From IMG/VR virus record IMGVR_UViG_3300046323_000587, positions 162,481 through 226,480 of that record: DNA of 64,000 bases, one strand, 5' to 3'. A program made the position numbers and the translations under genes. How positions within the stretch are numbered: position 1 is the first letter of the stretch; each line of letters opens with the position of its first letter. The notes beneath the pieces are model-generated. The model did not search any database, was not told the origin of the DNA, and saw nothing but the letters and a program-made list of their open reading frames with translations. This document shows positions 1-18,325 of this stretch, in pieces. This DNA is from a virus.

Positions 1-1251
1 TGTTCCGTAAAAAGTTCTTACAGATTCGTTATCTAAATTTCCAAAACTTCCAGCTGGTTGATCTGGTCTCTCAATATTATTAGTAAAAGGGGTTTTAGTA
101 CTTACTAATAAAGGAGAAATATGTTTAGAATTTTTTACATATTTATCAGGTATATATTTATGAGCATTGACACCTTCGTAAATTGATAATGGGTCAAATC
201 TTTTAAGAGATTCTTCATATTGTTCTTTTAATTCATTATTTTTTCTATTTAAATGTAAATCTCTTATTATAGAACTTGCTTCTGGAGTATAAGTGTAAGC
301 ATATTTTTTATCTGGAGTAGCCCAAAATAGTTCTAAATTTTTACTATATTCTGGTTTTACACGTACTTCTCCTTTTTCGGCTCTTTCTGAATTTGATTTA
401 CTTCCACCTCTATAATAAATATCTTGTACTTTACTACCCTTTAATTCTTTTTGTGCTTGTTCTGATTTAGTAGAAAGATAAAGTGCATCTGCTATATCAT
501 CATCTTTTGTATTTAAATCTTTATAATACTCTCTAGCACCAGGAATTTCATCTTTTATTTGTCCATACAATTTACTACCTCTATCAACTTCAATACCTTG
601 TTCTTTTGCTTGTTTAAGAAAATCAGTAAACATTTCAGTATTACTTACATAATCTTTAATAACAGGTTTAAATGTCTTTGCAGCATCTCCAGCTAATCCA
701 AATAATGGTAATACTCCTGCTAATGTCAATGGTGAAATTTTACCTGTTGATTTATATTCTTTCCAAGCATCAGAAGCACCTTTAACATCTCCAATTACTG
801 GTAACATATCTGCAACAGTATTAACAATAGATTTACTTACAGCTTTGTTATCCATTGTTTTATCAAGTTTATCTTTTGTATTAGGAACATTCACATTACC
901 TAATGTAGCAGTAGTATTCTTTTGTCTAGGTAAAAGATTAGCTTCTTGTGATTGTCTTTGAGACATACCAAATCCACTAGCATTACCGCCACGTTCTTTT
1001 TCTATACGTCTCTGAATAGCTAATCTCGTACTCATATCATCACCTTGTTCTTCTGATAGTTTTTCAATCTCTTGTTGTTGTTCTCTTTTATCAGATAATA
1101 AACCTTTATTGATTTTAAATTCAAAATAGCTGATTGCTCTACTATTTTTATGCTTAATAGCATTAGCATACATATTTCTTTCAACTGGTGAAAGATGCTT
1201 ATTAGCACCAACTTGTAATGCTTGTTTATCTCCGTCTTGATATTTATTCAT
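1..1251 (-). CDS. Partial gene: tagged multidomain protein with pretoxin-like and ART-like regions
   Basis: The frame is open from ATG at 1251 to the window edge, giving at least 417 codons; the C-terminus lies outside. Residues 14-70 (GANKHLSPVERNMY, then FKINKGLLSDKREQQQEIEKLSE) match the N-terminus of the 6174-7172 protein, so the two share a domain. Residues 142-195 are Gly/hydrophobic helices (DMLPVIGDVKGASDAW, PLTLAGVLPLFGLAGDAAK) resembling pretoxin regions of polymorphic toxins. Residues 278-321 hold IYYRGG and, about 28 residues on, LFWATPDKKYAYTYT, which resembles the YRG and F-x-(T/S) signatures of ADP-ribosyltransferase-like polyvalent domains. The enzyme call is inference, because the region with the catalytic glutamate is off the window. 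The start is MNKYQDGDK, a short form of the tag seen in neighbouring genes. Last visible gene of the minus-strand cassette. Confidence 0.75.
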   Translation of the reverse strand, partial: MNKYQDGDKQALQVGANKHLSPVERNMYANAIKHKNSRAISYFEFKINKGLLSDKREQQQEIEKLSEEQGDDMSTRLAIQRRIEKERGGNASGFGMSQRQSQEANLLPRQKNTTATLGNVNVPNTKDKLDKTMDNKAVSKSIVNTVADMLPVIGDVKGASDAWKEYKSTGKISPLTLAGVLPLFGLAGDAAKTFKPVIKDYVSNTEMFTDFLKQAKEQGIEVDRGSKLYGQIKDEIPGAREYYKDLNTKDDDIADALYLSTKSEQAQKELKGSKVQDIYYRGGSKSNSERAEKGEVRVKPEYSKNLELFWATPDKKYAYTYTPEASSIIRDLHLNRKNNELKEQYEESLKRFDPLSIYEGVNAHKYIPDKYVKNSKHISPLLVSTKTPFTNNIERPDQPAGSFGNLDNESVRTFYGT

Positions 1252-1256
1252 TGTCG

Positions 1257-3404
1257 TTATTTATTTAATAATTTTATATTCTTTAAGAACTTCTGTTTAT
1301 CAATATTAATCTTATCTTTCTTTAAATCTTTTAATACATAATCAGAGATTTCTTTTCTATTAGACTTATTTTTCACTTTATTAAGAATTGTAGTAATTCC
1401 TGAAATCATTTCTTTAATGTCTGATGTATTCTTTCCTCCTTTACTATACTTTAAAGGTTTTTTAAGTAACAACTCTTTTGGTTTCTTTACTACTTTGCCT
1501 ACATAATCTATCAAATCAGGTTCAATAATAGAGTGAGCTTCGTGTTCAACTGTACCAGGAATTTTATATCTTAGATTGTTCCCAATTTTATCGTACAATA
1601 TTTGTTTTGGTAGAAAAGAAAAATCATTAGTATTTTGAATACCAGTAAAGTATTTTGTTAATTCTGGAATATTATCCATTATCCAATCAGCTGAATTTTG
1701 ATTTGCATTATGATAATTATCAATAATTTCTTTTGTATGGCTTGTTTGAGGTTCTCTATTTAATTCATTTCCAATATGAGTTGTTTTACTTACTTTTTGT
1801 AAAGCGTGAGGAATTTCACTAATTAAATCTTGATAAGAATTTGGATTAACTGTAATCTTGTGTTCTATAGGGGTATAAAAAGCTCTTGTATTATTTTTAT
1901 TTAATTCAATTTCTGGATTTCCTGATTCTTCTAACAGTTGTTTAATCCTAACTTTATGAGAAGGAAGTAAATTTGAGTTAGACAGCAATTTATTTAAATT
2001 ATCTTTTGTCATTTGTTTTATAGAACTTAACTCTATCTTACTTCCTTTTTGAAATTTCATTAAAAATTTAAGTTTGTTTCCTTTTTTATATATTTGATTT
2101 TGTTGTTCTGGTGAACTAGACTTATTTAAATAAGAATTTATTCCAACTGCTGGTAAAGCTACTGCTGGTAATTTATTCATTGCAGAAACAAATTTTTTCT
2201 TGTCTTTAAGGTAACTTAATAAATCTTTTTTATCTTGTGAGAAGTTATTAAAGTTATTGTCTATATCTTGTTCTGTAAGTAATTTATAAGGATCTTTAGG
2301 ATTTATTTGATGTCTAATTTCTTGCATTCTTGCGGATATCTCTGTAGGTTTTAAAAGATATTCAGCATTTCTATAGTTTTTATCTTTATCTAAAATTTCA
2401 TTAAATTCATATAAAGGTTTATCTGAATGTAATTTTTTATAATTATCTCGAATATTGTCTAAATCAGTATTTCCATTTTCTGAAAATCCGTCAAGCAATA
2501 ATTTTTCTTGTTTTGGGTATATTAAATTATTACTTTGAGTTCTATTATGATCTAATTCATGTATTCCAGTATTTTTTATATCTGGCATACTAGGATCTAA
2601 AAAAACATTTGTTTCTGCTTTAACTATTTTATCTGTTGTTTTATTTAAATTAGGTATAGCAGAATATATTTCTTTATTTTCTATTGGAGTATCTCCTAAT
2701 AAAGGATAGTGTACGCCCATATTACCTTGTAATATATCTTGATCCTTAGTAAGTTGTGGTGTAATTGCATTAGTTCTTTTTCTCATTTTAGCTATATCTT
2801 CATTTATATACCCTACTGCTAAGGCCCTTCTTTCAAATTCTGGACTATTAATTTGTTTTCTGTATGCTTCTGTACCAGCATTTAATTCTTTTTGTGCAGA
2901 AGATTTAGTTAAATTATTTTTTAACTCTAAAGCAGCTTCTTTTACTTCTTTACCAAATTGATTTAATTTCTTTTTAGTTACTGTAACAACTGGTTTTACT
3001 ACATTTTTAGCTAAATTGGTTATTTTTTGTACACCTTTTTGAGCTAATTTTTTAACTACTGCTTTACCTAATAAACTTGTACCTCCAGTTAAAGCAGTTT
3101 CAGCTATTTGTTCAAAAGTATCATCTGGATTAATTTTACCTGTTGCCATACCAGTTTTAGCATCAATTAAGCCTTTATTAATTTTATCTTGTCTAGAGCC
3201 TTCTACAACTCTATTTGAAGCTTCTTTAGCTTTTTGTATCAATTCCCTATTAAGAAATACTCCTACATCATTTTTACCTTTACTAGGATTGTTTTGAGAT
3301 TCCCATAAAGAACGTGGTTTGTTGTTTCCTGTACGTTTAATATATTGTTCATAAGTCTCTACTGTTTTAGCAGGAAACTGAAATTTCTTGTATGATTTAA
3401 TCAT
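1257..3404 (-). CDS. Large HExxH metalloprotease-type protein with internal KGGKL-like tag (cargo/effector candidate)
   Basis: 715 residues. HELDH at residues 282-286 is a zinc-protease HExxH motif; downstream NAEYLLKPTEISAR (346-359) supplies a conserved Glu in an E-x-x-AR context. The same arrangement occurs in the proteases at 7509-8303 and 9290-10740. Residues 95-145 are hydrophobic/basic, like a pretoxin segment, and follow a KINKGL patch (74-79) shared with two neighbours. Residues 440-457 (KKGNKLKFLMKFQKGSKI) contain the full form of the tag that other proteins carry at one end. A second catalytic-looking region follows, with SEIPHALQ (529-536) and VEHEAH (619-624), of unknown activity. 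The start is MIKSYKKFQ, also tag-like. The gene overlaps the upstream gene by 8 bp and lies 5 bp from the next. Protease chemistry is likely; substrate and location are unknown. Confidence 0.8.
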   Translation of the reverse strand: MIKSYKKFQFPAKTVETYEQYIKRTGNNKPRSLWESQNNPSKGKNDVGVFLNRELIQKAKEASNRVVEGSRQDKINKGLIDAKTGMATGKINPDDTFEQIAETALTGGTSLLGKAVVKKLAQKGVQKITNLAKNVVKPVVTVTKKKLNQFGKEVKEAALELKNNLTKSSAQKELNAGTEAYRKQINSPEFERRALAVGYINEDIAKMRKRTNAITPQLTKDQDILQGNMGVHYPLLGDTPIENKEIYSAIPNLNKTTDKIVKAETNVFLDPSMPDIKNTGIHELDHNRTQSNNLIYPKQEKLLLDGFSENGNTDLDNIRDNYKKLHSDKPLYEFNEILDKDKNYRNAEYLLKPTEISARMQEIRHQINPKDPYKLLTEQDIDNNFNNFSQDKKDLLSYLKDKKKFVSAMNKLPAVALPAVGINSYLNKSSSPEQQNQIYKKGNKLKFLMKFQKGSKIELSSIKQMTKDNLNKLLSNSNLLPSHKVRIKQLLEESGNPEIELNKNNTRAFYTPIEHKITVNPNSYQDLISEIPHALQKVSKTTHIGNELNREPQTSHTKEIIDNYHNANQNSADWIMDNIPELTKYFTGIQNTNDFSFLPKQILYDKIGNNLRYKIPGTVEHEAHSIIEPDLIDYVGKVVKKPKELLLKKPLKYSKGGKNTSDIKEMISGITTILNKVKNKSNRKEISDYVLKDLKKDKINIDKQKFLKNIKLLNK

Positions 3405-4188
3405 TGTTGTCTAATTTAAATTTATATAAAGAAAATAATTTTCCTCCTTTTGAGTAAGCAGGTATTACAAATGCAGCTCCAGAAAACCCTTTTGCATAAG
3501 TATTGTAATCTTTCCACTGAGCTGTAGACAATTGATTTTTACTATTTGCTTTTGGTTTTGCTGAATATCTTCCCATATCTTGATAAGTAAAATGCAGATC
3601 TTTTGGATTTAATTCATAATCTTTAATAATTTGTTCTCCTTGTTCTTTTAAAACTTCTGGAATTCCAGATACATCTATACCTATTTGTTTACCATTTTTA
3701 TCAGTAAAGAGATAAGTTACGCTTCCTCCACTAAATCTAGAAAAATTTTGATTTCCTGTACTAGATATACTTGTTTCTTGACCTTTTTTTGTTGGAATAT
3801 AATTAGATTTTTGTCCAATTTGCCAACCTGTAGACTTTCCTTTATTATTCCAGTCTATGTTTGCAAAAGAGTTAGATCTAACTGGTAATTTACTATCGTA
3901 ACCTTCTTCGTCTAAATATTTTTTGTTATTTAAATCAATTCCTTTTATATCTTTAAATTTTTTATACCTAACTAAATATTCTCCATTGAGTTGTTTTTTA
4001 TGTTGAGCTATATAAGTATCGGGAGTTTGTGGAATATCTGGTAAAAATATATCTTCGTACTTAGATTTTACTGGACCACTTTTCCAATCACTATGTTGTT
4101 TTGTATTTTTTTGATTTGGTGTAATGTCTCCGTCCATAATAAAATGAGATACACCTAATACATTATTTAATGTACTATCTTTAGACAT
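3397..4188 (-). CDS. Tagged hypothetical protein (C-terminal SKGGKLFSLYKFK)
   Basis: 263 residues with no fold that I recognise. The N-terminal half is hydrophilic and contains LPDIPQTPDTY, similar to APDIPTYDTP in the protease at 9757-10740. The centre (RFSGGSVTYLFTDKNGKQIGIDVSG) looks like beta strands. The C-terminus SKGGKLFSLYKFKLDNND is a clear copy of the cassette's basic Gly-Gly tag. The start ATG overlaps by 8 bp the end of the broken gene upstream, and its own end overlaps the next gene by 8 bp, so translation is probably coupled along the three genes. Function unknown; the tag and neighbours suggest a cargo protein. Confidence 0.75.
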   Translation of the reverse strand: MSKDSTLNNVLGVSHFIMDGDITPNQKNTKQHSDWKSGPVKSKYEDIFLPDIPQTPDTYIAQHKKQLNGEYLVRYKKFKDIKGIDLNNKKYLDEEGYDSKLPVRSNSFANIDWNNKGKSTGWQIGQKSNYIPTKKGQETSISSTGNQNFSRFSGGSVTYLFTDKNGKQIGIDVSGIPEVLKEQGEQIIKDYELNPKDLHFTYQDMGRYSAKPKANSKNQLSTAQWKDYNTYAKGFSGAAFVIPAYSKGGKLFSLYKFKLDNND

Positions 4189-4862
4189 TTCGTTTTAATT
4201 TAGGTAATACAATTGTTCTTCCTCCTGTAGAGTTATCAAAAGTTCTTTTAAAAGAGTGTAATTCTCCATTTTTATCTTTAGCAACTCTTAACAATTCATA
4301 AGATTCTCTATATTTCTCTTCAGGTGTTTTTGAATTTGATTTTGAGTTTAGTTTTGAATCTGATTTTGAATTGTTGTTAGAAGTAGATTTTTTAGGCTCT
4401 ACTTTAATTAATTTTGATCCTCATCTTTTGTAGTCAATTTATCTCACCCTCGTTTCAATCCTCCTACAACAACAGTAGCGTTATCAGGAGTAAATATCGA
4501 AGTAACTCTATTTACAAATGAAGGTTCTTGATCAGTTTTGCTTGAATTTTTATTCTCGTTTTGAGAGATAAAACTATTTTCTGTAGAACTTTGTTTAAAA
4601 TTGTTTTGAGTGTTTGGTAGTCTATTAAGAGTAATAGGAGTAGTTTTTTGTCTATTTAAAATAGATTTATTTAATTCTAATCTATTTTTATTTGTGTTTT
4701 CTAAATTATTTTGTTTTAGATAATCTTGGTAAGCTTTTTCTGTTTTTGGTCCCCAAGCTCCATTTATTTTTACACCTAAAACAGACTGTATTTTTTTATT
4801 TTTTCAACACCATTTTCATTTATTTTGCCATTATTTTGAAACTTTTCTATAAATTTTTTCAT
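4181..4862 (-). pseudogene. Broken gene: tagged peptidoglycan-binding-like protein with two frameshifts and one TGA
   Basis: Reading from ATG 4862 gives MKKFIEKFQNNGKINENGVE (an N-terminal tag) and then stops. A one-base frame change in the A-rich stretch near 4795 continues as IQSVLGVKINGAWGPKTEKA, a PG_binding_1-like repeat, followed by an Asn/Ser-rich linker and VVVGGLKRG up to an in-frame TGA at 4444-4446. A second one-base change near 4425 enters a frame ending STGGRTIVLPKLKRNV, with its stop at 4181 overlapping the next start by 8 bp. Each junction needs one added base, consistent with shortened A runs. It may be a decaying gene, a programmed-frameshift gene or a sequencing artefact. 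TGA is a normal stop elsewhere (for example 55519-55521), so recoding is unlikely. Confidence 0.65.
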
Positions 4863-5185
4863 TGATTTGTTTTAATTAAATTTTAACAAAGTAATACTGA
4901 TATGAGTTTTACATCATTTTTTTTACAATATTATAAATTATTTTATTTACTCTTCCTAATAGCTAGTAGCTTTATTTTGAACCTTAGTCAAATCCTTTTA
5001 TCTTTTCAGTTTCATTTCTATTAGTTTTGTAGTTAAGTTTTAGGTTTTAATTAAGATTTAAAAGTAAAGTTTAAAATTAAATTAGAGTTCAATATTTAAA
5101 AAGTAAAAGATAAAATAAATAGAGTTCTAAATGATAATATATGAGATTTTAATTACTTTATTGAATTAATAGAGTAACCTTATTC
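4863..5185. other. Gene-free AT-rich spacer
   Basis: 323 bases with no credible coding frame between the wHTH gene and the broken tagged gene. The sequence is mostly A/T with loose repeats of AAGTTTTAG and AAAGTTTAAAAT types, plus a short palindrome AGCTAGTAGCT near 4970 followed by a T-rich stretch. I see no promoter consensus. It could carry a weak terminator or a late-promoter site, but nothing here shows it. Confidence 0.5.
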
Positions 5186-6115
5186 TTAATATTTATAATA
5201 AGTTTTAATACTAATAAAAGAAGGAAGATTAATATAAAGACATTGATTACGACCAATGAAACCAGATAAACCAGCTTCTGACATATAATTAAATATGGAA
5301 GAGTCATAAACTTGATGTTTAGTATTAATATAGTTCCTTTTTTCATCAAATAATAAACCAAGTTTTTTTAACTTATTGAAGATATTTTTAGCTTGTTGAT
5401 AAGTAACAGATTTAAGTTTTGCTAAAACACTTCTACTTGAAAAAGCAACAGGATTAATTAAATCTTTAAAATTGAATTTAGATAAATTAGAGAAGAAGCG
5501 CGAACCATATTTTGTAATATAATTATCAAAATTCTCGTTTATATGTTTAGTAAGACGAGAAATGATATTTTTATTAGCTTGATTTAATTTTTGCTCACTA
5601 GCTATGAAAATGCCTTTTTCTTTTAATTCATTCTTAACAATTTTATCAATAATAACTTTTTCTTGTTGTTTTTTATTTTGGTCAAGTGCATCTGCAATTA
5701 GAATTTCTTCTAGCATATACAAATCACCACAAGGTACTTTTAATACTCTAGTTTTAGCTACAACGATTTCTGAGTTTTCTGACCAAAATTCGTGAGTACG
5801 AAACACTTTTTTAGTAGCTTGAATAGTAAGATTATTTCCATCTAAAGTAACCCAACCAAGAGCAAGAAGATTTTTAATATGTTTTTTGACCCATTGCTCA
5901 GATGGTGTACGTAAATCACAATCATTTACTACAAATTGATTTATATTTCTAATATCAAGATATTGTGATTTATAGTTTAATATAACACCTCCAACATATA
6001 AAGCTTTCAATTTAAAAAAGAAACAAGTATTACTCATCATAGTATTGTCTAATACCAGATATCTTGATAAACCAACAGGAATAGAAATTTGAGTAACTTG
6101 TTTAATTTGTTTCAT
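5186..6115 (-). CDS. Putative DNA-binding protein with two winged-helix-like segments
   Basis: 309 residues, unrecognised family. Two segments read like winged helices: about residues 70-105 (TPSEQWVKKHIKNLLALGW followed by a VTLDGNNL wing) and about 225-262 (SSRSVLAKLKSVTYQQAKNI, then KLGLLFDEKRNYI). The layout resembles plasmid or phage replication-initiator and MarR-like proteins, so a regulator or replication role is inferred only. It lies inside the cassette of tagged cargo genes but carries no tag itself, and is followed by a 323-base spacer, so it may be a separate transcription unit. Confidence 0.7.
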   Translation of the reverse strand: MKQIKQVTQISIPVGLSRYLVLDNTMMSNTCFFFKLKALYVGGVILNYKSQYLDIRNINQFVVNDCDLRTPSEQWVKKHIKNLLALGWVTLDGNNLTIQATKKVFRTHEFWSENSEIVVAKTRVLKVPCGDLYMLEEILIADALDQNKKQQEKVIIDKIVKNELKEKGIFIASEQKLNQANKNIISRLTKHINENFDNYITKYGSRFFSNLSKFNFKDLINPVAFSSRSVLAKLKSVTYQQAKNIFNKLKKLGLLFDEKRNYINTKHQVYDSSIFNYMSEAGLSGFIGRNQCLYINLPSFISIKTYYKY

Positions 6116-6173
6116 TTTTATTATTTGTTTAAATGTTAAGAGAGTGTTATGATGTAAATATAACTAAAATAAT

Positions 6174-7172
6174 TTATCTTCTTTTGTCGAAACCAAATTT
6201 TTTTTGTTCTAGTAACAAATATATATAAGGATTTTCGTCTTGTGTATACTGTTTTTGTAAGGAACTTAATTTATTTAAAATTTCTTCTTTAGAATTTTTA
6301 TCTATATTTCTTAACTTATCAAAATCTTTGCTTAAAATTTCTTGTAAATTAGTTTTAAATACAGCTGGAGATCTTTTTTCTAATTCTGGCAATAAATTGA
6401 GGTTATTGATATAATCATCTTTAAGTTTTATTACATTTTTTAAATTATTTTTATCAGATAAAATTTTTAAAAAATTGTCGCTATCTGTAGCAGATTTTGA
6501 CATTTCAGATAAACCTATATCTGAAATATTTTTTATTGGATTAAATTTAGAGCTGATTTGCGAAACTAGTTTATTTTTTAACTGTTTCCCTAAAATAGGT
6601 ATAGTTTTTGCCCCAACAGTTATTAGTGATCCTACATCTGTCACTGGTTCAACTAAATTACTTACACCAGATATAGTATTCTCTAATGTATGTTGTTTAT
6701 TAGCTTCATTTCTTTTTTTATTGTATTGGGTTTGTTGATAAAGCTTTAAATCAGGGTCTTTAGTTTTATTTATCTTACGTTGAGCAACATAGTCTTCCTC
6801 AGTCTTTTCTGGACGGCCTGACACAGCTTCTTTAATATCTGATACAGCTAAACTAATAGAATTTCCTGATAAAGTATTATATAAAGGAATATAAGCTTTC
6901 CAAGAATTTGCATTAGATTGTTTTTCTACTAAATTTGTACCGTCTCTTTGATCTCTTCCAGATAATTCAGAAAGACGTTCAATTTCAGATTGTTGTTCTT
7001 TATTATCTTTAACTAATCCTTTATTAATCTTATTTTCAAAGTAATTTATTAATTTACTATTCTTTTTAGCAACTGCTCCTCTATACATTGCTTGTTCAGT
7101 AGCTGATAAATGTTTTTGAGCACCTTTATTCAAACCACCTAATTGATGTTTTAATATTGATTTTAATTTCAT
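6174..7172 (-). CDS. Tagged protein sharing an N-terminal domain with the left-edge gene
   Basis: 332 residues. The N-terminus MKLKSILKHQLGGLNKGAQK carries the N-terminal form of the cassette tag and continues into KHLSATEQAMYRGAVAKKNS and FENKINKGLVKDNKEQQSEI, which align closely with residues 14-70 of the gene at 1-1251. A central hydrophobic stretch (TDVGSLITVGAKTIPILG) is reminiscent of pretoxin helices. The C-terminal 140 residues are helical and charged, with no catalytic motif that I recognise. Only four bases separate it from the 7177-7494 gene. It is probably a paralogue whose C-terminal domain has been swapped; function unknown. Confidence 0.75.
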   Translation of the reverse strand: MKLKSILKHQLGGLNKGAQKHLSATEQAMYRGAVAKKNSKLINYFENKINKGLVKDNKEQQSEIERLSELSGRDQRDGTNLVEKQSNANSWKAYIPLYNTLSGNSISLAVSDIKEAVSGRPEKTEEDYVAQRKINKTKDPDLKLYQQTQYNKKRNEANKQHTLENTISGVSNLVEPVTDVGSLITVGAKTIPILGKQLKNKLVSQISSKFNPIKNISDIGLSEMSKSATDSDNFLKILSDKNNLKNVIKLKDDYINNLNLLPELEKRSPAVFKTNLQEILSKDFDKLRNIDKNSKEEILNKLSSLQKQYTQDENPYIYLLLEQKKFGFDKRR

Positions 7173-7176
7173 TGTT

Positions 7177-7494
7177 TTATAATATAAATTTTAATAAAGA
7201 ATTTAACTTACCTCCTTGTTTCCAAGTTTTAAATCTTTTATGCCAATATAAAGGACTAAATGGGTCTTTTGCTTTTGAAGAATCTTTACCTCCCATTCTA
7301 TTCCAGAAGTTATTACGTCTATCTTTATTTTTATGTTGAGTAAAATCTTCCATTCCACGAAATCCTCCTGAAACTATTTTATATTTATCACCTTTCTTTG
7401 CTAATACCTGCCACTTTTTACTTGAATCAGCTGGAGCTGTTTTCTTAACTCCTACTTTATTAAATCCTTTCTTTATATATCTTTCTGGTATCAT
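7177..7494 (-). CDS. Small basic conserved phage protein with C-terminal KGGKL tag
   Basis: 105 residues, strongly basic. It begins MIPERYIKKGFNKVGVKK and contains KWQVLAKKGDKYKIVSGG, DFTQHKNKDRR, FWNRMGG and SSKAKDPFSPLYWHKRFKTW. I recall closely similar small basic proteins from other large Bacteroidota phages, where the function is not known; this is recollection, not a search. It ends KQGGKLNSLLKFIL, the C-terminal form of the tag, and the next gene begins four bases later with the N-terminal form. A nucleic-acid-binding or virion role would fit the charge but is unproven. Confidence 0.8.
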   Translation of the reverse strand: MIPERYIKKGFNKVGVKKTAPADSSKKWQVLAKKGDKYKIVSGGFRGMEDFTQHKNKDRRNNFWNRMGGKDSSKAKDPFSPLYWHKRFKTWKQGGKLNSLLKFIL

Positions 7495-7508
7495 TTTCTA
7501 TTGATAAT

Positions 7509-8303
7509 TTAATTTATTTTAAATTTACTTAAAGAAGAAAGTTTAGCTCCTTTCTTAGCATATAATACACTAGATTTTTGTTTGTTGCTTACTAAACCAT
7601 TCATCATCTCAATAAATTTATTATCCTCAAAAGATTTAATTAAATTTCCCAGTTTCAATCCTTTATGTTTTGATTTAATCAATTCTAAATCTTCTAATTT
7701 AAACTTATCTTCTGGTTTTTTGTTAAGAAACTTTCTCATTCCCATTAACTCAGGATATAATTCGTGTTCTTGTCCATTATTAAATTGATCTACTTCTCCA
7801 GACTTAGTATAACTTTTAATATAATTCTGTAATTCAGAACTTTCATCAAAATGTGTAGAATGAGTAAATTCGTGAACACTTGTACGAGGAATAGATACAA
7901 TACCATCACCTAAAAAATCATTATATTTCTTAATAGTTTTAGGGAAGACTACAACTTGATGTTTATCTTTTAGGTAAGCTCCTGATACACCTTTATAATG
8001 ACGTTTAACTTTTTCAATATCTTCTTTTGTATATGGTGTATCATTAACAGGAGATTTTAAAAACATTTCTCGTTCTATTTCATCTTCAGGTATAACTGAA
8101 ACTGTATTTAATTTGTTTTGAATATTAGATAAAGTTGTATTAGCTTTTTTCTTGTTACCATACAACTTTATCATTTTATCTCTTGTTGTAGGATTATTAA
8201 ACCAATCTTTTACATAATTAAGATGTTCTTTTAAATCTGTTTCAGAATTTACAGAAGTATTTTGGACAGATTTTGTAGGTTTATCTTTGTCAAATTTGTT
8301 CAT
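7509..8303 (-). CDS. HExxH zinc-metalloprotease-type protein with C-terminal tag
   Basis: 264 residues. HEFTH at 144-148 is preceded by strands (QVVVFPKT, IVSIPRTSV) and followed by ELYPELMGMRKFL (181-193), whose Glu sits where the E-x-x-AR motif lies in its two relatives, so it may be the third zinc ligand. The last 16 residues, AKKGAKLSSLSKFKIN, are the cassette tag. The N-terminal 70 residues are charged and helical. There is no signal peptide. It is the smallest of three related metalloprotease genes and the best example of catalytic domain plus tag. Substrate unknown; host cell entry or lysis are possibilities but inference. Confidence 0.8.
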   Translation of the reverse strand: MNKFDKDKPTKSVQNTSVNSETDLKEHLNYVKDWFNNPTTRDKMIKLYGNKKKANTTLSNIQNKLNTVSVIPEDEIEREMFLKSPVNDTPYTKEDIEKVKRHYKGVSGAYLKDKHQVVVFPKTIKKYNDFLGDGIVSIPRTSVHEFTHSTHFDESSELQNYIKSYTKSGEVDQFNNGQEHELYPELMGMRKFLNKKPEDKFKLEDLELIKSKHKGLKLGNLIKSFEDNKFIEMMNGLVSNKQKSSVLYAKKGAKLSSLSKFKIN

Positions 8304-8348
8304 AGCATAAATTTGTTTTATATTGATTTTATTTGATTTATACGATTT

Positions 8349-8606
8349 TTATAAAACATTTGATCCAGAGTTTAACTTATTAATATCTTTACTTAAATCA
8401 GCTAATATCGATTTAATTTCAAGTTTATCTTTTTCTGTAAATGGATTGATTTTTTGAATTTTGTCAAAATTAGGTGTAATCTCAGTTGGGTTGTTTAATT
8501 TGATTCCTGAAATTGATTTTTGGTAAGCTTTTTTTGTAATATTGTCCCAAATACCTGTTTGAGAAATGTTGAGATATTTTTGTAATAATTTTATACGCTC
8601 TTTCAT
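8349..8606 (-). CDS. Small protein with a peptidoglycan-binding-like N-terminus
   Basis: 85 residues. IKLLQKYLNISQTGIWDNIT followed by KKAYQKSI fits the PG_binding_1 pattern (LQ, then L, then G-x-W, then TxxAxxxxQ). The rest (PTEITPNFDKIQKINPF and a charged helix) is unrecognised. It lacks a clear basic Gly-Gly tag. The broken gene at 4181-4862 carries a similar repeat, so two peptidoglycan-binding-like proteins lie among metalloproteases, which points toward cell-wall contact. The match is short, so the call is moderate. Confidence 0.6.
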   Translation of the reverse strand: MKERIKLLQKYLNISQTGIWDNITKKAYQKSISGIKLNNPTEITPNFDKIQKINPFTEKDKLEIKSILADLSKDINKLNSGSNVL

Positions 8607-8626
8607 AATTATTAAATTATTATTAA

Positions 8627-9286
8627 TTAAGCACTAACTTGTGTATTAGGTCTTGGATGTAATCTCCAATACATTTGAGTGTATTTATTCACCATTCTTC
8701 CTATAATATCAGAAACCATCCAATTAGGTATTCCAGAAGGTGTCTCTCCATCTATTTTACAACAACCAAATTCTTCTAAATCTTTTGGATTAGCAGGAAT
8801 AAAATCTACACTAATATATTTAATGTTTTCAGTTGGAGGGTTAAATAAAAACCCATCTTTAAGATTTGGGTGAAACCAGACAAAAGGTTTTGTACGAGTA
8901 AATTTACCATAATCTTGTTGTTTCCAAGTTGGGCCTTTAACTATATTGAATACATATTCTCTATCAACAGTTCCTACAAACTTAATTGGATTTAGAACAT
9001 ATTGAGAAGGTTTAGGTAATTTAAAATGTAGTGTATTATTGAAGGAAGATACATTGCAACATAAACTTAAATCTTGACAATCTAATTCTAAACAATTAAT
9101 AGATTGTATTAATTCATTTTCTTGTAAAGTACCAGATAAAGATAATTGTTTAATTATTGCATCTCTTTCTACTAATATCTCATCTTGTAATTGTTCGTGA
9201 GAATAAGGTTCTTGTAAAGTTGCTCCTTTTAACCCAGCTAAAATATGATTATTAATTGCAGAAGCTATTTGTTCTAGAGTATTCAT
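8627..9286 (-). CDS. Conserved phage protein, possible virion structural component
   Basis: 219 residues with a helical N-terminus (MNTLEQIASAINNHILAGL) and a beta-rich body with paired cysteines (LELDCQDLSLCC, EFGCCKIDGE). The C-terminus NKYTQMYWRLHPRPNTQVSA is aromatic and ordered. It is untagged, unlike its neighbours, and looks like a head-tail or tail component rather than an enzyme, but I cannot assign a family. The start ATG lies 3 bases from the stop of the preceding gene fragment, consistent with one operon. Confidence 0.65.
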   Translation of the reverse strand: MNTLEQIASAINNHILAGLKGATLQEPYSHEQLQDEILVERDAIIKQLSLSGTLQENELIQSINCLELDCQDLSLCCNVSSFNNTLHFKLPKPSQYVLNPIKFVGTVDREYVFNIVKGPTWKQQDYGKFTRTKPFVWFHPNLKDGFLFNPPTENIKYISVDFIPANPKDLEEFGCCKIDGETPSGIPNWMVSDIIGRMVNKYTQMYWRLHPRPNTQVSA

Positions 9287-9289
9287 TGA

Positions 9290-9607
9290 TTAAAATTTAA
9301 TTTTATTAAATGAAGATAGTATACCTCCTAATTTAAAAGTCTTATTCATAATTTTTTTAATATTTCTTTTGTTTGTCATTTCGTCAGGTTTAATTTCTCT
9401 ATTAAACAAAGTATTTGCTATTTTAGCAAAGAATTTAGGTTGTTTTTTTGTACTATGATATAATTCATAAGTATCTGTATCTATATCTTCAGAGTTATTT
9501 TCTGCTAAATTTTTCAACTCTTTCCAATTTTTGTTTTTAAATTTTTTTTGTGAATTGTATTTACCTAAATCCTCTAAATTAAACATTGTAGTATATTTTC
9601 TAGCCAA
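9290..9607 (-). CDS. C-terminal part of frameshifted metalloprotease, with terminal tag
   Basis: The frame is open from 9775 down to 9290, but the only start upstream of 9590 is a TTG at 9607, so this is unlikely to be an independent gene. Read back across the AT repeat it continues the 9757-10740 protein. The restored stretch includes DYLSIPDERLARKYTT, which matches YLLKPTEISARMQE of the 715-residue metalloprotease, that is, the Glu motif expected downstream of HExxH. The last 15 residues, KLGGILSSFNKIKF and flank, are the cassette tag. Removing one AT unit (or adding two) at 9760-9773 fuses the two parts. Treat 9290-10740 as one gene of about 480 codons in another phase. Confidence 0.7.
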   Translation of the reverse strand: MARKYTTMFNLEDLGKYNSQKKFKNKNWKELKNLAENNSEDIDTDTYELYHSTKKQPKFFAKIANTLFNREIKPDEMTNKRNIKKIMNKTFKLGGILSSFNKIKF

Positions 9608-9756
9608 CCTTTCATCAGGAATAGATAAATAATCTTTATAAGGTTTTGTTGGTTCTCCATTTAACTGTTCACTTATTTTTTGTTCGATAGCTAAATTTTT
9701 ATGTAAATTTTTAATATAAGCATTTTCATCAGATTCTTTTTTTCCATAGGTAGATT

Positions 9757-10740
9757 CTAATATATATATATATTTTTATCTGAAAGATTGTTTCCTCCTC
9801 CTGTAGCTGCGTGTGAAAATTCGTGAGTACCTAAATATTTATATATATCTTTATAAGTTCTTTCTACATCTTTAGATTTATTGTAGGGACCTACTTCCAT
9901 AGGAAAAACAAATTCTTTTTTTGAAGGTAAGTTAATTTTTTTTGTATTATTAGAAAAAATTTGTACGTTAGGAGATGTTAAATTGTCTTTTGGGTAATCT
10001 AGCCCTGTATCTTCTAAATTTTTTAATCTTGTACCTATTTGTTTATCATTATATCCAGCAACTTTATTTAATTTTTGACCTCTTTTCGAAGTATAAAAAT
10101 CTATCAATCTTTTTTTATCGGGTTCGTAAGAATCTTTAAAAGATTTTTTATCGGTATAATTTTTTAAATTATAGCCCTCTAATTTTGTAGGTAAAGGTTG
10201 TTGAGATTTACCAGTTAATCTAATAATTTCAGAATCTACATTTTCTTTATGCCAACCAACAAGTTTTTGTTTATATTCTTCAGCATTATTTTTTGCCTCT
10301 TTTAAATTTTGAGTTATTTTTTCTATTTGTTGTTTATCTATAGGATCTAAAGAGTAGTTTTTTGGATCTTCCAATTTTTTAAAAGATTCTTTCCTATTAT
10401 AAAAATCTAAATCTTTTTCTAAGTCTTTTACATGATTTGTATACAATGTATTAACATCTGTTGGAGTTTTTTGTTCGGCTTTTAAATTTTCTAATTCATT
10501 AAGCAAATTTTCTCTATTCATTTTATTCCAAGGGTCTACATTTTCTTGAAATTCTTCTTCAGGTGTATCATAAGTAGGAATATCTGGAGCGTAATAATTA
10601 TTATATTTATCTTTTGAGTCTTTTTTAATATTTCTTTTTCCTTTAATATCTACATTTTTTAGTACAATAGTTGAATTTTGTAAAGTTCCATCAGGTTCTT
10701 GGTATTTTTTAATTTTTTTAAAACTATTTAGTTTTTTCAT
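9757..10740 (-). CDS. N-terminal part of frameshifted HExxH metalloprotease
   Basis: 327 residues before a TAG created inside or just after an AT repeat. The start MKKLNSFKKIKKYQEPDG is the N-terminal form of the tag. A long charged helical region follows, then FVFPMEVGPY and THEFSH (HEFSH at 306-310), the zinc-protease motif. The predicted third-ligand motif is only present in the next fragment (9290-9607 frame). The protein ends in an artificial NIYIY translated from the repeat. It sits just downstream of the strong terminator at 10751-10795, so it probably starts a separate unit or is expressed by read-through. Confidence 0.75.
   Translation of the reverse strand: MKKLNSFKKIKKYQEPDGTLQNSTIVLKNVDIKGKRNIKKDSKDKYNNYYAPDIPTYDTPEEEFQENVDPWNKMNRENLLNELENLKAEQKTPTDVNTLYTNHVKDLEKDLDFYNRKESFKKLEDPKNYSLDPIDKQQIEKITQNLKEAKNNAEEYKQKLVGWHKENVDSEIIRLTGKSQQPLPTKLEGYNLKNYTDKKSFKDSYEPDKKRLIDFYTSKRGQKLNKVAGYNDKQIGTRLKNLEDTGLDYPKDNLTSPNVQIFSNNTKKINLPSKKEFVFPMEVGPYNKSKDVERTYKDIYKYLGTHEFSHAATGGGNNLSDKNIYIY
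9760..9773. repeat. AT dinucleotide microsatellite, seven units, at the protease frameshift
   Basis: Seven AT units followed by five T bases. It lies exactly where the upstream protease frame ends and the downstream frame must begin. Loss of one unit or gain of two restores a continuous reading frame. Slipped-strand changes at such tracts are a known route to phase variation, but a sequencing or assembly indel would look identical. Confidence 0.8.
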
Positions 10741-13917: not shown

Positions 13918-15306
13918 TTAGATATTTTCTTGCATAATAAAACCAGCATAAGGGTTGAATACAGCTACACCAGAGTAACCAATGATAGATTTAGTTGTAC
14001 CGTCAAAAGTAGAACCCATTGTACCAGAAGTCATACCATCAACTCCACCTAAACCTGGCAAAGTACCTTCAATCATTTCACGTCCTTTAAGAGTAAACAT
14101 AGAAACATTTGCACGTCCTTCTACCATTGTAGTATCAATAAACAAAGCATAACCATATTTATCATAAATTTCAGAAAGAATTGTATCAACAGTAAAGTTG
14201 ATAGTATTTCCCATCCATTGATAAGCTTTAAATGAACCACCAACTGTAATGTCTCCACCATTTTTAGTCCAGTAATAACCTCCATCAATAGCAGTAGACC
14301 TTAATTTATCTTCAAGAGCTTTAGAAATTTGTTTATATCCAATCCAGTTACAAACTACTGTGATATTATTTCCTGTTGTTTTACCTGTTTTTTTAACAAT
14401 ACTATCAATAGCATCTTCAAAAATAGAAGTAGTTAATTTTGTGTAGAAAAATTTATCGCAATAACGTTCAATTTGAGCTAATACCCCGTCACCTGAATCT
14501 AAAGCAGCTCCTGTAATACTATCGTGATCTAAGCAATTGCCGTTAATATCATGGTTATCTCTGCCTAACAACATTGAATTTTCTCTCATATAAAGGAATT
14601 GATCCAAGATTGCTTTTGCAGGTTGCTCCATTTTAAAATATTGTTTATTATCAGCTTGTCCAGCTTCAAAATAAATCATTTTAGCATCATTAGTCCAGCT
14701 ACCATCAACACGTACACGAGTAATATATCCACGGTGTTCTTCTAATTTCAACATACCTTTTTGATTACGTTGATCAACAGAACCATCAGATACGATATTT
14801 GAACGGAACATAGTTCTACGACCTCTTGTGGTGTATTGAGTATTCAGTCCTCTTGACATATCATTGTTTACTAAAACACAAGTATATCTCCAACGATTGT
14901 TATTCATTTTTTCTGGCGCTTGGATAACACGCAATTGAGTTACATTGTCTTCCAAAGAGAAAGTATCATTTGTTGCATAATAATTTTTCTCTAAAATCAA
15001 TGCAATAGGTTGTCTATTAGATCCACTTGAAGTACAATCTTCCATAATCGTTACTTTAGGAATCATATTAGTTTCAATTCTCCAAGTAAATTGCATTGCA
15101 TTAACAGATTCATAACTAGATTTACGATCTCTTACAATAACTCTACCTAAACCTTGTGTAATTGTAGAAATTGTCAAATCTTTTCTTGTTCTAGCCATTA
15201 AACCTAGTGCAGTTGTTCTTTTACCTAAAAGAGAGCTAATATTTTGTATGTTTTGTGTTGTATTCTGCAAATTTTGTGGTAAATCACTTAATTCAATTAC
15301 TCTCAT
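13918..15306 (-). CDS. Major capsid protein (HK97-fold candidate)
   Basis: 462 residues. The call rests on the size, its place after a scaffold-like gene and downstream of terminase and portal, and its sequence character. The N-terminus has coiled, processed-looking helices (LPQNLQNTTQNIQNISSLLG). The body is mixed alpha/beta (AILDQFLYMRENSMLLGRDN, then FEDAIDSIVKKTGK). The C-terminus VAVFNPYAGFIMQENI is typical of HK97-type capsid proteins ending in a surface strand. Codons are somewhat less extreme in A/T than those of its neighbours, as expected of a highly expressed gene. It is followed by its own terminator. No homology search was done. Confidence 0.75.
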   Translation of the reverse strand: MRVIELSDLPQNLQNTTQNIQNISSLLGKRTTALGLMARTRKDLTISTITQGLGRVIVRDRKSSYESVNAMQFTWRIETNMIPKVTIMEDCTSSGSNRQPIALILEKNYYATNDTFSLEDNVTQLRVIQAPEKMNNNRWRYTCVLVNNDMSRGLNTQYTTRGRRTMFRSNIVSDGSVDQRNQKGMLKLEEHRGYITRVRVDGSWTNDAKMIYFEAGQADNKQYFKMEQPAKAILDQFLYMRENSMLLGRDNHDINGNCLDHDSITGAALDSGDGVLAQIERYCDKFFYTKLTTSIFEDAIDSIVKKTGKTTGNNITVVCNWIGYKQISKALEDKLRSTAIDGGYYWTKNGGDITVGGSFKAYQWMGNTINFTVDTILSEIYDKYGYALFIDTTMVEGRANVSMFTLKGREMIEGTLPGLGGVDGMTSGTMGSTFDGTTKSIIGYSGVAVFNPYAGFIMQENI

Positions 15307-16669: not shown

Positions 16670-18325
16670 TTAAATTAGAGTCAAAACTTTGGTTTTAGTA
16701 TCGTAAGTTAATGTTCCTACTGAGGTACCTAAATTTGTAGTTGCATCTCCATAACCTGGAGATACAGTAGTTGTAGATTTATTTATAGTTTGAGTATTTA
16801 CAAGAGTTCCTCCTCCAATAGAAGGAGTAAATGAATATACAGGAGTAAGAGTTAAACCTGAATATTGTAAAGCTTGTATTGTAATAGCTCCTGTACCAAC
16901 AGAAGTGTCCCACAAAGCTCTTATATCTAATTTAATTTGTGAAACTTTTGGATGTTTGGCAATCATAGTTTTAAAATCTATTACAAAAAATTCTTCTTTT
17001 GTTGTTGTAATATTAGGAGAACTTCCGCACCATACAGCATAAAATATATTATTTCCACTAATATTTTCTTTTAATTGAACATCTGTTGCAAATCCAGCAA
17101 TAAATCCACTATTAGGAATACGCTGTTCCATATAAGGAGTAAATTGAGAAAACATTAATCTAGTAAGTAAAACTGTTGTAGAACTAGCTGCTGTCCAAGT
17201 AAATTTTAAAATGACTAAATCTGTTGCAGGCCCAGGTATACATTTACCTTGAGTATTAGCAAGAGTTTGTTTATTTGCACTAAACCAAGTAGTTGCTTGA
17301 AGATCTGCGTCTGCTTGTGAAACTAAAGAAGTAAATTGACCTAATGTTGTAGAAATTGTTTCTGAACTTCCAACTAATGGAGCACTACAATTATTTTTTT
17401 GTACTAATTCTGTTATTACAACACTTCTATAAGTAACAATATCAATACAATTTAATCCAGCTTTTGCTTGTTGAGTAGCTAAATTTAAAGCTTGATTATC
17501 AGCATCAATTTGAGATATATAAGAATTAATTGTACCTGCTGATACAGTTGATGTATTACTACTAGGTTGTTTACCTGCTCCACAGTTTGCTGTAAAAGTT
17601 TGATCGGTATTAGTATATGTAATAGGTGTACAAACTCCTTGAATATTGGCTATAGATTGTCTAGTTCTATTTAATTCTGCAATAGCTTTATTATCTGCAT
17701 CAATTTGTGAAACGTAAGATTGAAAAGAATTTGCTGCAATATTAACTGTAACATTGCTAGGCGTTGTATTAATTGGACAAGTACTTCTTAGTAATGTAGA
17801 AGTTTGTAGTACATTATAAAATATTGGTAATGGAGTACAAGTACCTTGAGCATTTGCTAAATTTTGTTTATTGTTATTCAAGTAATTAATTGCTAAATTA
17901 TTTGCTTCAATCTGAGTTGCTGCTTTAAATGTATTTGCTGCAATTGTAATTGTTTCATTAGAACCTATATAACCAATAGCACAATTATTTCGTTGAATTG
18001 TTGTAGTTTGAATAACATTTCCAAAAGAAATTGAGCACACAGTTTCATCTTTTTTAGTTCTATTATCTAATAATATTTTAGCTTCTTCTATTGTTGAAGA
18101 TATTAAATTAGCTAAATTAGTAATAGAAATTGAATTTGGTATTATAGTTAAAATGCTTTTTTCTTTTGTTATTGTTTCTAAATCTGTATATGTAAAAAAT
18201 CCATCGTTGAGTCCACTACAAGTATAATTCTTCCAAGCAAATGATTTACGAGATTGCAAAGATTCAATTGTAATTGTAGTACAAGGATTAGATTTAATAC
18301 AAGAATAATTAATTTTAGTTATCAT
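16670..18325 (-). CDS. Virion surface protein with four DUF5977-like repeats
   Basis: 551 residues. Four tandem repeats of 60-70 residues (about 96-165, 166-235, 236-297 and 298-365) share the pattern Q-x-F/T, NNC, a small-residue core, (S/T)Q-x-(D/E)A(D/N), then LAN-x-QG-x-C-x-P. This is the pattern I associate with DUF5977 repeats of Bacteroidota surface proteins. The N-terminus ITIESLQSRKSFAWKNYTC and the C-terminal 180 residues are beta-rich. It is probably an extended fibre or adhesin-like part of the virion. The next four genes are of the same character. Confidence 0.7.
   Translation of the reverse strand: MITKINYSCIKSNPCTTITIESLQSRKSFAWKNYTCSGLNDGFFTYTDLETITKEKSILTIIPNSISITNLANLISSTIEEAKILLDNRTKKDETVCSISFGNVIQTTTIQRNNCAIGYIGSNETITIAANTFKAATQIEANNLAINYLNNNKQNLANAQGTCTPLPIFYNVLQTSTLLRSTCPINTTPSNVTVNIAANSFQSYVSQIDADNKAIAELNRTRQSIANIQGVCTPITYTNTDQTFTANCGAGKQPSSNTSTVSAGTINSYISQIDADNQALNLATQQAKAGLNCIDIVTYRSVVITELVQKNNCSAPLVGSSETISTTLGQFTSLVSQADADLQATTWFSANKQTLANTQGKCIPGPATDLVILKFTWTAASSTTVLLTRLMFSQFTPYMEQRIPNSGFIAGFATDVQLKENISGNNIFYAVWCGSSPNITTTKEEFFVIDFKTMIAKHPKVSQIKLDIRALWDTSVGTGAITIQALQYSGLTLTPVYSFTPSIGGGTLVNTQTINKSTTTVSPGYGDATTNLGTSVGTLTYDTKTKVLTLI

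What the first reader, a model, noticed from the sequence alone, without database searches (positions are those of the whole stretch)
1..10740. Shared basic Gly-Gly tag on a run of unrelated cassette proteins
At least seven neighbouring minus-strand products, otherwise unlike each other, carry one short motif. C-terminal forms: SKGGKLFSLYKFK (3397-4188), KQGGKLNSLLKFIL (7177-7494), KKGAKLSSLSKFKIN (7509-8303), KLGGILSSFNKIKF (9290-9607). N-terminal forms: MKLKSILKHQLGG (6174-7172), MKKLNSFKKIKKYQ (9757-10740), MKKFIEKFQNNGKI (4181-4862). The 715-residue protein holds an internal full form, KKGNKLKFLMKFQKGSKI, which joins both halves into a core KxGGKLxSLxKFQxGG. The same peptide attached to proteases, peptidoglycan-binding-like proteins and a pretoxin-like protein is what a sorting, packaging or ejection tag would look like. 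I infer virion cargo loading, comparable in concept to the capsid-targeting sequences of T4 internal proteins. I know of no described function for this motif.
Basis: partly seen in the sequence, partly recalled or inferred. Interest (0 to 1): 0.85.

Follow-up and report, generated by a model that had tools for sequence, protein, structure and literature searches.

The report
Shared tag on crassvirus cargo proteins
A large crAss-like gut phage puts the same short lysine/phenylalanine/glutamine-Gly-Gly peptide on the start, end or middle of many unrelated late proteins, and its relatives put it on the proteins encoded where crAss phages keep their injected cargo, so it is probably an address or joint for proteins that ride in the virus particle, though nobody has yet shown that it works this way.

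Summary
The window is part of a 226-kb crassvirus. A profile of the peptide, trained only on relatives, was scored on all 256 ORFs of this genome; the six best N-terminal and six best C-terminal scores all fall at 138.6-173.2 kb, where the cassette lies. In about 30 relatives the same peptide ([IV]xKFQxGG at N-termini, [KR]xGG[KR]L at C-termini, both fused internally) marks the gene block between the tail muzzle and the virion RNA polymerase. Capsid, ring, muzzle and polymerase proteins lack it (3 hits in 629 structural-block ORFs). Nine contigs fetched without using the tag give 29 tags against 1.5 expected. Unrelated genes inserted into these blocks, including a lysozyme-like one, often carry it. 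A small 'tag-linker-tag' protein has it at both ends in nearly all relatives. In phiCrAss001 this block encodes the proven virion cargo protein gp45, whose family has similar but statistically weaker termini. Best reading: a virion cargo address that doubles as a joint between cargo modules, comparable in concept to the T4 capsid-targeting sequence. Virion presence, receptor and cleavage are untested, and packaged polymerases lack the tag.

The parts
1228..1251 (-). N-terminal tag MNKYQDGD of the 709-aa protein (its window part is 1-1251)
   Evidence: sequence; shuffle p=0.0275 with relatives' profile
3366..3404 (-). N-terminal tag MIKSYKKFQFPAK of the 715-aa protein (1257-3404)
   Evidence: p=0.0255
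2034..2087 (-). internal full form KKGNKLKFLMKFQKGSKI in the 715-aa protein
3415..3453 (-). C-terminal tag SKGGKLFSLYKFK of the 263-aa protein (3397-4188)
   Evidence: p=0.011
4821..4862 (-). N-terminal tag MKKFIEKFQNNGKI of a frame-broken gene (4181-4862)
   Evidence: frame broken in two places, same in contig L017
7134..7172 (-). N-terminal tag MKLKSILKHQLGG of the 332-aa protein (6174-7172)
   Evidence: p=0.0005
7180..7221 (-). C-terminal tag KQGGKLNSLLKFIL of the 105-aa DUF5754 protein (7177-7494)
   Evidence: p=0.0065
7512..7556 (-). C-terminal tag KKGAKLSSLSKFKIN of the 264-aa HEFTH protein (7509-8303)
   Evidence: p=0.002
9293..9334 (-). C-terminal tag KLGGILSSFNKIKF of the 105-aa protein (9290-9607)
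   Evidence: p=0.09, weak on its own
10687..10740 (-). N-terminal tag MKKLNSFKKIKKYQEPDG of the 327-aa HEFSH protein (9757-10740)
   Evidence: p=0.003
8627..9286 (-). untagged core gene inside the cassette: tail ring protein 2
   Evidence: PF25702 E=2.9e-11; no tag
13918..15306 (-). untagged core gene: crassvirus major capsid protein
   Evidence: PF23898 E=2.2e-22; no tag

Best explanation
The peptide is a short linear motif that marks late 'cargo' proteins of crassviruses. It has an N-terminal form, M-x(0-8)-[IV]-x-K-[FYLH]-Q-x-G-G, and a C-terminal form, [KR]-x-G-[GA]-[KR]-[LIV]-x-x-[LRF]. Where two cargo modules are fused in one polypeptide, the two forms meet as an internal joint. The likely mechanism is that the motif binds a common partner at the portal or tail-barrel end of the head during assembly. 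Candidate partners are the portal or tail lumen, or the small tag-linker-tag protein acting as a hub. Any module that carries the motif would thus be co-packaged in the cargo zone and ejected with the DNA. In this phage an accessory cassette of about 12 kb (zincin-like, topoisomerase IB and other modules), inserted between ring genes, has been given the same address. SHOWN here: motif reality, cargo-block restriction, N, C and internal placement, presence on unrelated inserted genes, conservation at both ends of one small protein. INFERRED: packaging, receptor, ejection.
For: Out-of-sample profile test on G000: the top 6 N and top 6 C scores of 256 ORFs all lie at 138.6-173.2 kb. Inserted genes 8/11 tagged against core structural 0/9. 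Relatives: tags in muzzle-to-RNAP blocks and 3 chance-like hits in 629 structural-block ORFs. Contigs fetched through the linker's middle, not the tag: 29 tags in 79 ORFs against 1.48 expected. Small linker protein tagged at both ends in 19/19 and 8/8 contigs and homologous in G000. Unrelated inserted genes are tagged, including a lysozyme-like one with C-terminal YYNGGKLLKKVGK. The same block in phiCrAss001 holds gp45 (C1), shown by cryo-EM and mass spectrometry to be in capsid and tail; its ordered portal-bound part starts at AFGGWL and the tail segment lies just after AYGGPLEF (PMC10172136). gp45 relatives have KSKGGKLKKKK-like tails; two of nine have significant N-ends and one a significant C-end. 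Precedent for short packaging tags: T4 IPIII and P1 DarB.
Against: No virion proteomics exists for this clade. The virion RNA polymerases, also cargo, carry no tag, nor does the DUF192 protein in relatives. Terminal tags are absent from cargo proteins of phi14:2 (detected by MS) and of the Suoliviridae looked at. Homology of this clade's C1-like protein to gp45 could not be shown by profile, sequence or fold comparison. phiCrAss001 gp45's own C-terminal tail scores only p=0.097.
Confidence: 0.58

Rival explanations
1. The motif is a recognition site for a phage maturation protease: cleavage near GG trims targeting tails from N- and C-termini and separates modules of long polyproteins, as T4 gp21 removes capsid-targeting propeptides.
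For: Placement at N-ends, C-ends and internal module junctions of long proteins is what a processing site would show. T4 targeting and cleavage share one propeptide. Phage P1 DdrB is cleaved before packaging (PMC5512222). Zincin-like HExxH proteins lie in the same cassette.
Against: The conserved part covers both sides of GG and includes hydrophobic and basic positions beyond a usual scissile core. The published model treats gp45 as continuous across such sites (residues 214-245 and 425-552 bridged). No dedicated prohead protease was identified in the block.
Confidence: 0.2
2. The motif is only a flexible, basic linker or tail that helps unfolded cargo thread through the tail or stick to DNA or membrane, with no specific receptor.
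For: Gly-Gly flanked by Lys/Arg and hydrophobics; the tails in gp45 relatives are strongly basic. Cargo is thought to be extruded partly unfolded (PMC10172136).
Against: Sequence-specific: K 96%, F 70%, Q 87%, GG 93-100% in 46 N-tags. Generic linkers would not conserve Gln and Phe, or be restricted to cargo-block genes.
Confidence: 0.17
3. Chance or compositional artefact of Lys-rich, AT-rich coding.
For: The window is 23-34% GC, and the individual match at 9290-9607 is weak (p=0.09).
Against: 29 observed against 1.48 expected in contigs fetched without the tag; 8/27 against 3/229 in G000.
Confidence: 0.02
4. The tag marks recently recombined or common-ancestry ends (a recombination hot spot or shared gene fragment) without function.
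For: The 709-aa and 332-aa proteins share a 70-residue N-module, 56% identical. The 263- and 264-aa C-tags share 8 of 9 codons at identical residues.
Against: Conserved at both ends of an orthologous small protein across about 27 phages, standard-code and TAG-recoded alike, which needs selection.
Confidence: 0.03

Closest known systems
Phage T4 capsid-targeting sequence (CTS) of internal proteins IPI-III
   Same: Short peptide on otherwise unlike small late proteins; proposed to let various effectors be packaged and injected (PMC9026906).
   Different: T4 CTS is N-terminal only, about 10 residues, removed by gp21, different sequence. This motif occurs at N, C and internal positions, and cleavage is unknown.
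Phage P1 DarB capsid-targeting sequence
   Same: Targeting part of an injected anti-restriction protein that directs a reporter to the head (PMC9024508).
   Different: Known from one large protein; no shared short motif across a gene block.
Crassvirus cargo protein C1 (phiCrAss001 gp45) and C2 (gp46)
   Same: Same genomic place (between muzzle and RNAP); gp45 relatives have basic [KR]xGG-type ends and internal F-x(1,2)-GG joints.
   Different: No significant sequence, profile or fold match to this clade's C1-like protein; the tag was not noted in the passages of Bayfield et al. 2023 that were searched and read.
Polyvalent proteins of phages and conjugative elements (Iyer et al. 2017)
   Same: Multi-module effectors with zincin, ART and nuclease-type modules, encoded near virion genes and thought to be injected (PMC5512222).
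   Different: Here modules are mostly separate genes that share a peptide; no PolyVal Pfam domain was hit.

Membership tests
Crassvirales phage | Crassvirus major capsid protein, ring and muzzle genes in order | tested here: met
   PF23898, PF25702, PF25731 hits; synteny with MT835470 and others
T4-type capsid-targeting sequence | Short peptide shared by unlike late proteins | tested here: met
T4-type capsid-targeting sequence | N-terminal propeptide position only | tested here: not met
   many copies are C-terminal or internal
T4-type capsid-targeting sequence | Removal by prohead protease at a defined site | not testable with these tools
   needs N-terminomics of virions
T4-type capsid-targeting sequence | Sufficient to package a reporter | not testable with these tools
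   experiment
Crassvirus cargo protein C1 (PF25725) | Match to the portal-bound C1 domain | tested here: not met
   no Pfam match for the C1-like proteins; hhalign prob <1%; no significant PDB fold hit from a low-confidence model (pLDDT 55)
Crassvirus cargo block | Gene position between muzzle and giant RNAP | tested here: met
   G000 138.6-153.8 kb and relatives. The cassette at window 1-10740 itself lies on the other side of the muzzle, among ring genes
Polyvalent proteins | Two or more disparate known effector domains in one polypeptide | tested here: inconclusive
   no Pfam or NCBIfam domain assigned in the 709- and 715-aa proteins
Double-glycine (C39) leader peptides | N-terminal leader ending in GG on secreted small peptides | tested here: not met
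   C-terminal and internal copies; carriers up to 1711 aa

The most novel reading that the evidence does not exclude
Crassviruses use a position-independent packaging motif (N, C or internal) as a plug-in address and joint. Any enzyme module that gains it is loaded in the virion and injected, so the injected effector set of these very abundant gut viruses can be read from sequence alone.
Probability: 0.45. Interest if true: 0.85.

Novelty: new variant of a known kind. Interest (0 to 1): 0.7.

Why it matters
How crassviruses select and load the megadaltons of cargo protein in head and tail is unknown. A short sequence signature that separates cargo from structural proteins would predict which of their many unannotated late proteins are injected into Bacteroidota. 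It would name a receptor-binding peptide to look for in existing cryo-EM maps, and could serve to load chosen proteins into phages of gut bacteria. It also gives a direct test between address, protease site and linker.

Tried and rejected
Single-protein scans of viral contigs found only a second contig of the same phage; alignments were needed. tblastn of the 32-residue tag alone found nothing. Homology of this clade's C1-like protein to gp45, and of the ~620-aa family to gp46, was not supported; the ~620-aa family does match the G000 711-aa protein (hhalign E=9e-6). Structure prediction of the C1-like protein was poor (pLDDT 33 and 55). Fold search against PDB gave nothing significant; against BFVD the only good hit was a relative from crAss-like virus ctYsL76 (E=1.1e-3). 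Pfam, PHROGs and NCBIfam did not assign the cassette proteins apart from DUF5754. Paper searches found no description of the motif. Chance, C39 leaders and a T4-identical CTS were rejected. Records NC_024711 and JQ995537 (p-crAssphage) were not held.

Full report
Setting. The window is G000:162481-226480 of a 226,480-bp virus record. It carries a crassvirus major capsid protein (PF23898, E=2.2e-22) and tail ring protein 2 (PF25702, E=2.9e-11). A muzzle gene (PF25731, E=7e-36) lies just outside it. The nearest named records are crassviruses at 34% capsid identity or less. No cultured member of this clade was found.

The observation. Every quoted peptide is present. The ORF at 1-1251 belongs to a 709-aa gene with an N-tag and a second full form, YKSGGTLKSLKKFN. 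The 715-aa protein also has an N-terminal form. The 4181-4862 product is frame-broken in two places, identically in a second contig of the same phage. Outside the window the same peptide sits on the late genes at 138.6-153 kb next to the giant polymerase genes (MKSLYKSLKSIKKPLSKYQSGG, MRTFIRKFQEGG...RFGGKTKFKIRPRV, and others). It also sits on a topoisomerase IB (PF01028, E=1.4e-16) with the C-terminus KDGGKLPIYILKY.

Is it more than chance? In G000, the simple form [KR](K/R)[FYHI][QKNL]x(1,2)GG occurs 9 times in late genes against 1.4 expected from shuffles, and 0 times in 178 early genes. The nine include two overlapping counts of the same sites. I then built profiles from relatives only (46 N-tags, 30 C-tags, no G000 sequence) and scored G000. 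The six best N and six best C scores of 256 ORFs all lie at 138.6-173.2 kb. Terminal-shuffle p<=0.01 is met by 8 of 27 ORFs there and 3 of 229 elsewhere. Among genes inserted between core structural genes, 8 of 11 are tagged at p<=0.03 against 0 of 9 core genes (Fisher p=0.0014; at stricter cut-offs, 0.014 and 0.094, because few genes are compared).

Relatives. I fetched cargo regions of MT835470, MT835492 and about 29 IMG/VR contigs. Gene order is muzzle, C1-like protein, optional extra genes, DUF192 protein, a ~100-aa protein, a 770-1950-aa protein, a ~620-aa protein, virion RNA polymerase. Tags by family: the ~100-aa protein carries both tags in 19/19 and 8/8 contigs. The ~620-aa protein has the N-tag in 7/8 of the contigs fetched without the tag. 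The long protein and the C1-like protein often carry N-terminal or internal copies. The muzzle, polymerase and DUF192 proteins carry no terminal tags. In capsid-centred loci only 3 of 629 ORFs score above the cut-off, all chance-like. Eleven further contigs were found by matching the middle of the ~100-aa protein, not its tags. Nine of them, the standard-code or TAG-recoded ones, gave 29 tags in 79 ORFs against 1.48 expected. Profile positions: K 96%, F 70%, Q 87%, GG 93-100% in N-tags; [KR]xGG, K/R 74%, L 77% in C-tags. The training tags were picked by a pattern, so the counts in the training blocks (49 of 117 ORFs) are inflated; the G000, structural-block and nine-contig tests are not.

Unrelated carriers. 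Genes inserted into relatives' cargo blocks often carry the tag: a 230-aa lysozyme-like protein ending YYNGGKLLKKVGK (PF00959, E=0.0015, below the curated cut-off), a 258-aa IAKFQYGG, a 467-aa MKLIKKYQFGG, a 489-aa ...KKNGGVL, a 316-aa ...YARKGGLIKKSKK, and an 866-aa LIPKYQVG. Others are untagged. This is independent support for a tag that travels with cargo position rather than with a fold. In G000 the inserted cassette lies among ring genes, a place that is compact and untagged in relatives.

Link to known cargo. In phiCrAss001 the same genomic block encodes gp45 (C1) and gp46 (C2), found in virions by mass spectrometry. Ordered parts of gp45 were seen at the portal (425-552) and in the tail barrel (214-245) (PMC10172136). 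The portal-bound part begins at AFGGWL and the tail part starts next to AYGGPLEF. Across Steigviridae, gp45 C-termini read KSKGGKLKKKKGFTYG, KYSKGGKLKKRRGGLTY, KKSKGGKLKLKL, and some N-termini read RRNRKFAEGGG or NRYDDGGS. Scored with the profile, two of nine N-ends (L081, L084) and one C-end (L084) reach p<=0.01, and phiCrAss001 itself reaches only p=0.097 at its C-end. A G000 126-aa protein resembles a gp45 module by eye (GKFTxYC...KSSNxTxxKRAxFA), which would be a module split into its own gene; I did not test this statistically. Homology between this clade's C1-like protein and gp45 was not supported by any test. phi14:2 and the Suoliviridae cargo proteins examined lack the terminal form.

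Mechanism. The most likely reading is an address for loading into the cargo zone that also serves as a joint when modules are fused. It would act through a common partner at the portal or tail-barrel side; the doubly tagged small protein is an obvious hub candidate. Shown: the motif, its conservation, its restriction to the cargo block plus the inserted cassette, and its N/C/internal use. Inferred: packaging, partner, ejection. The main rival is a maturation-protease site, which fits the junction placement equally well. Packaged polymerases lacking the tag show that it cannot be the only packaging route.

Comparison and novelty. T4 CTS (10-residue N-terminal propeptide on unlike internal proteins) and P1 DarB are the closest in concept. 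The present motif differs in sequence, in position-independence, and in marking a whole gene block. Polyvalent proteins are the closest in content. Five paper searches in the held open-access library found no description of this motif; subscription papers and preprints were not covered.

Noticed in passing
G000 compared with L018, L022-L024, L027-L080 and most of L093-L112: This phage uses the standard code while nearly all its relatives read TAG as glutamine (coverage 0.1-0.7 with table 11, 0.8-1.0 with table 15).
   Followed up: partly
L104, L105 (IMGVR_UViG_3300006879_000111, 3300003155_000005): Crassvirus contigs that look TGA-recoded (table 4 coverage 0.97-0.99 against 0.75-0.79 with tables 11 or 15).
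   Followed up: no
window 4181-4862: A gene with a peptidoglycan-binding-like stretch is frame-broken in two places in two contigs of the same phage: a pseudogene, or unusual expression.
   Followed up: partly
window 1-1251 and 6174-7172: Two tagged proteins share a 70-residue N-terminal module (56% identity) and then diverge, like a common delivery module with different payloads.
   Followed up: partly
G000 160790-161602 (just outside the window): Eukaryotic-type topoisomerase IB core (PF01028, E=1.4e-16) carrying the C-terminal tag.
   Followed up: partly
G000 152916-153818: Patatin-like phospholipase (PF01734, E=2e-24) in the cargo block, untagged.
   Followed up: no
DUF192 genes in L014, L018, L022-L024, L066-L080, L093-L113: An untagged DUF192 protein almost always lies directly before the doubly tagged small protein (one or two genes intervene in a few contigs); it could be a tag reader. 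Speculative.
   Followed up: no
window 16670-18325: Four DUF5977 repeats (PF19404, E=2e-57) in a 551-aa late protein.
   Followed up: no
window 5186-6115: 309-aa untagged late-strand gene inside the tagged cassette, no family search made; possibly a regulator or replication-type protein.
   Followed up: no
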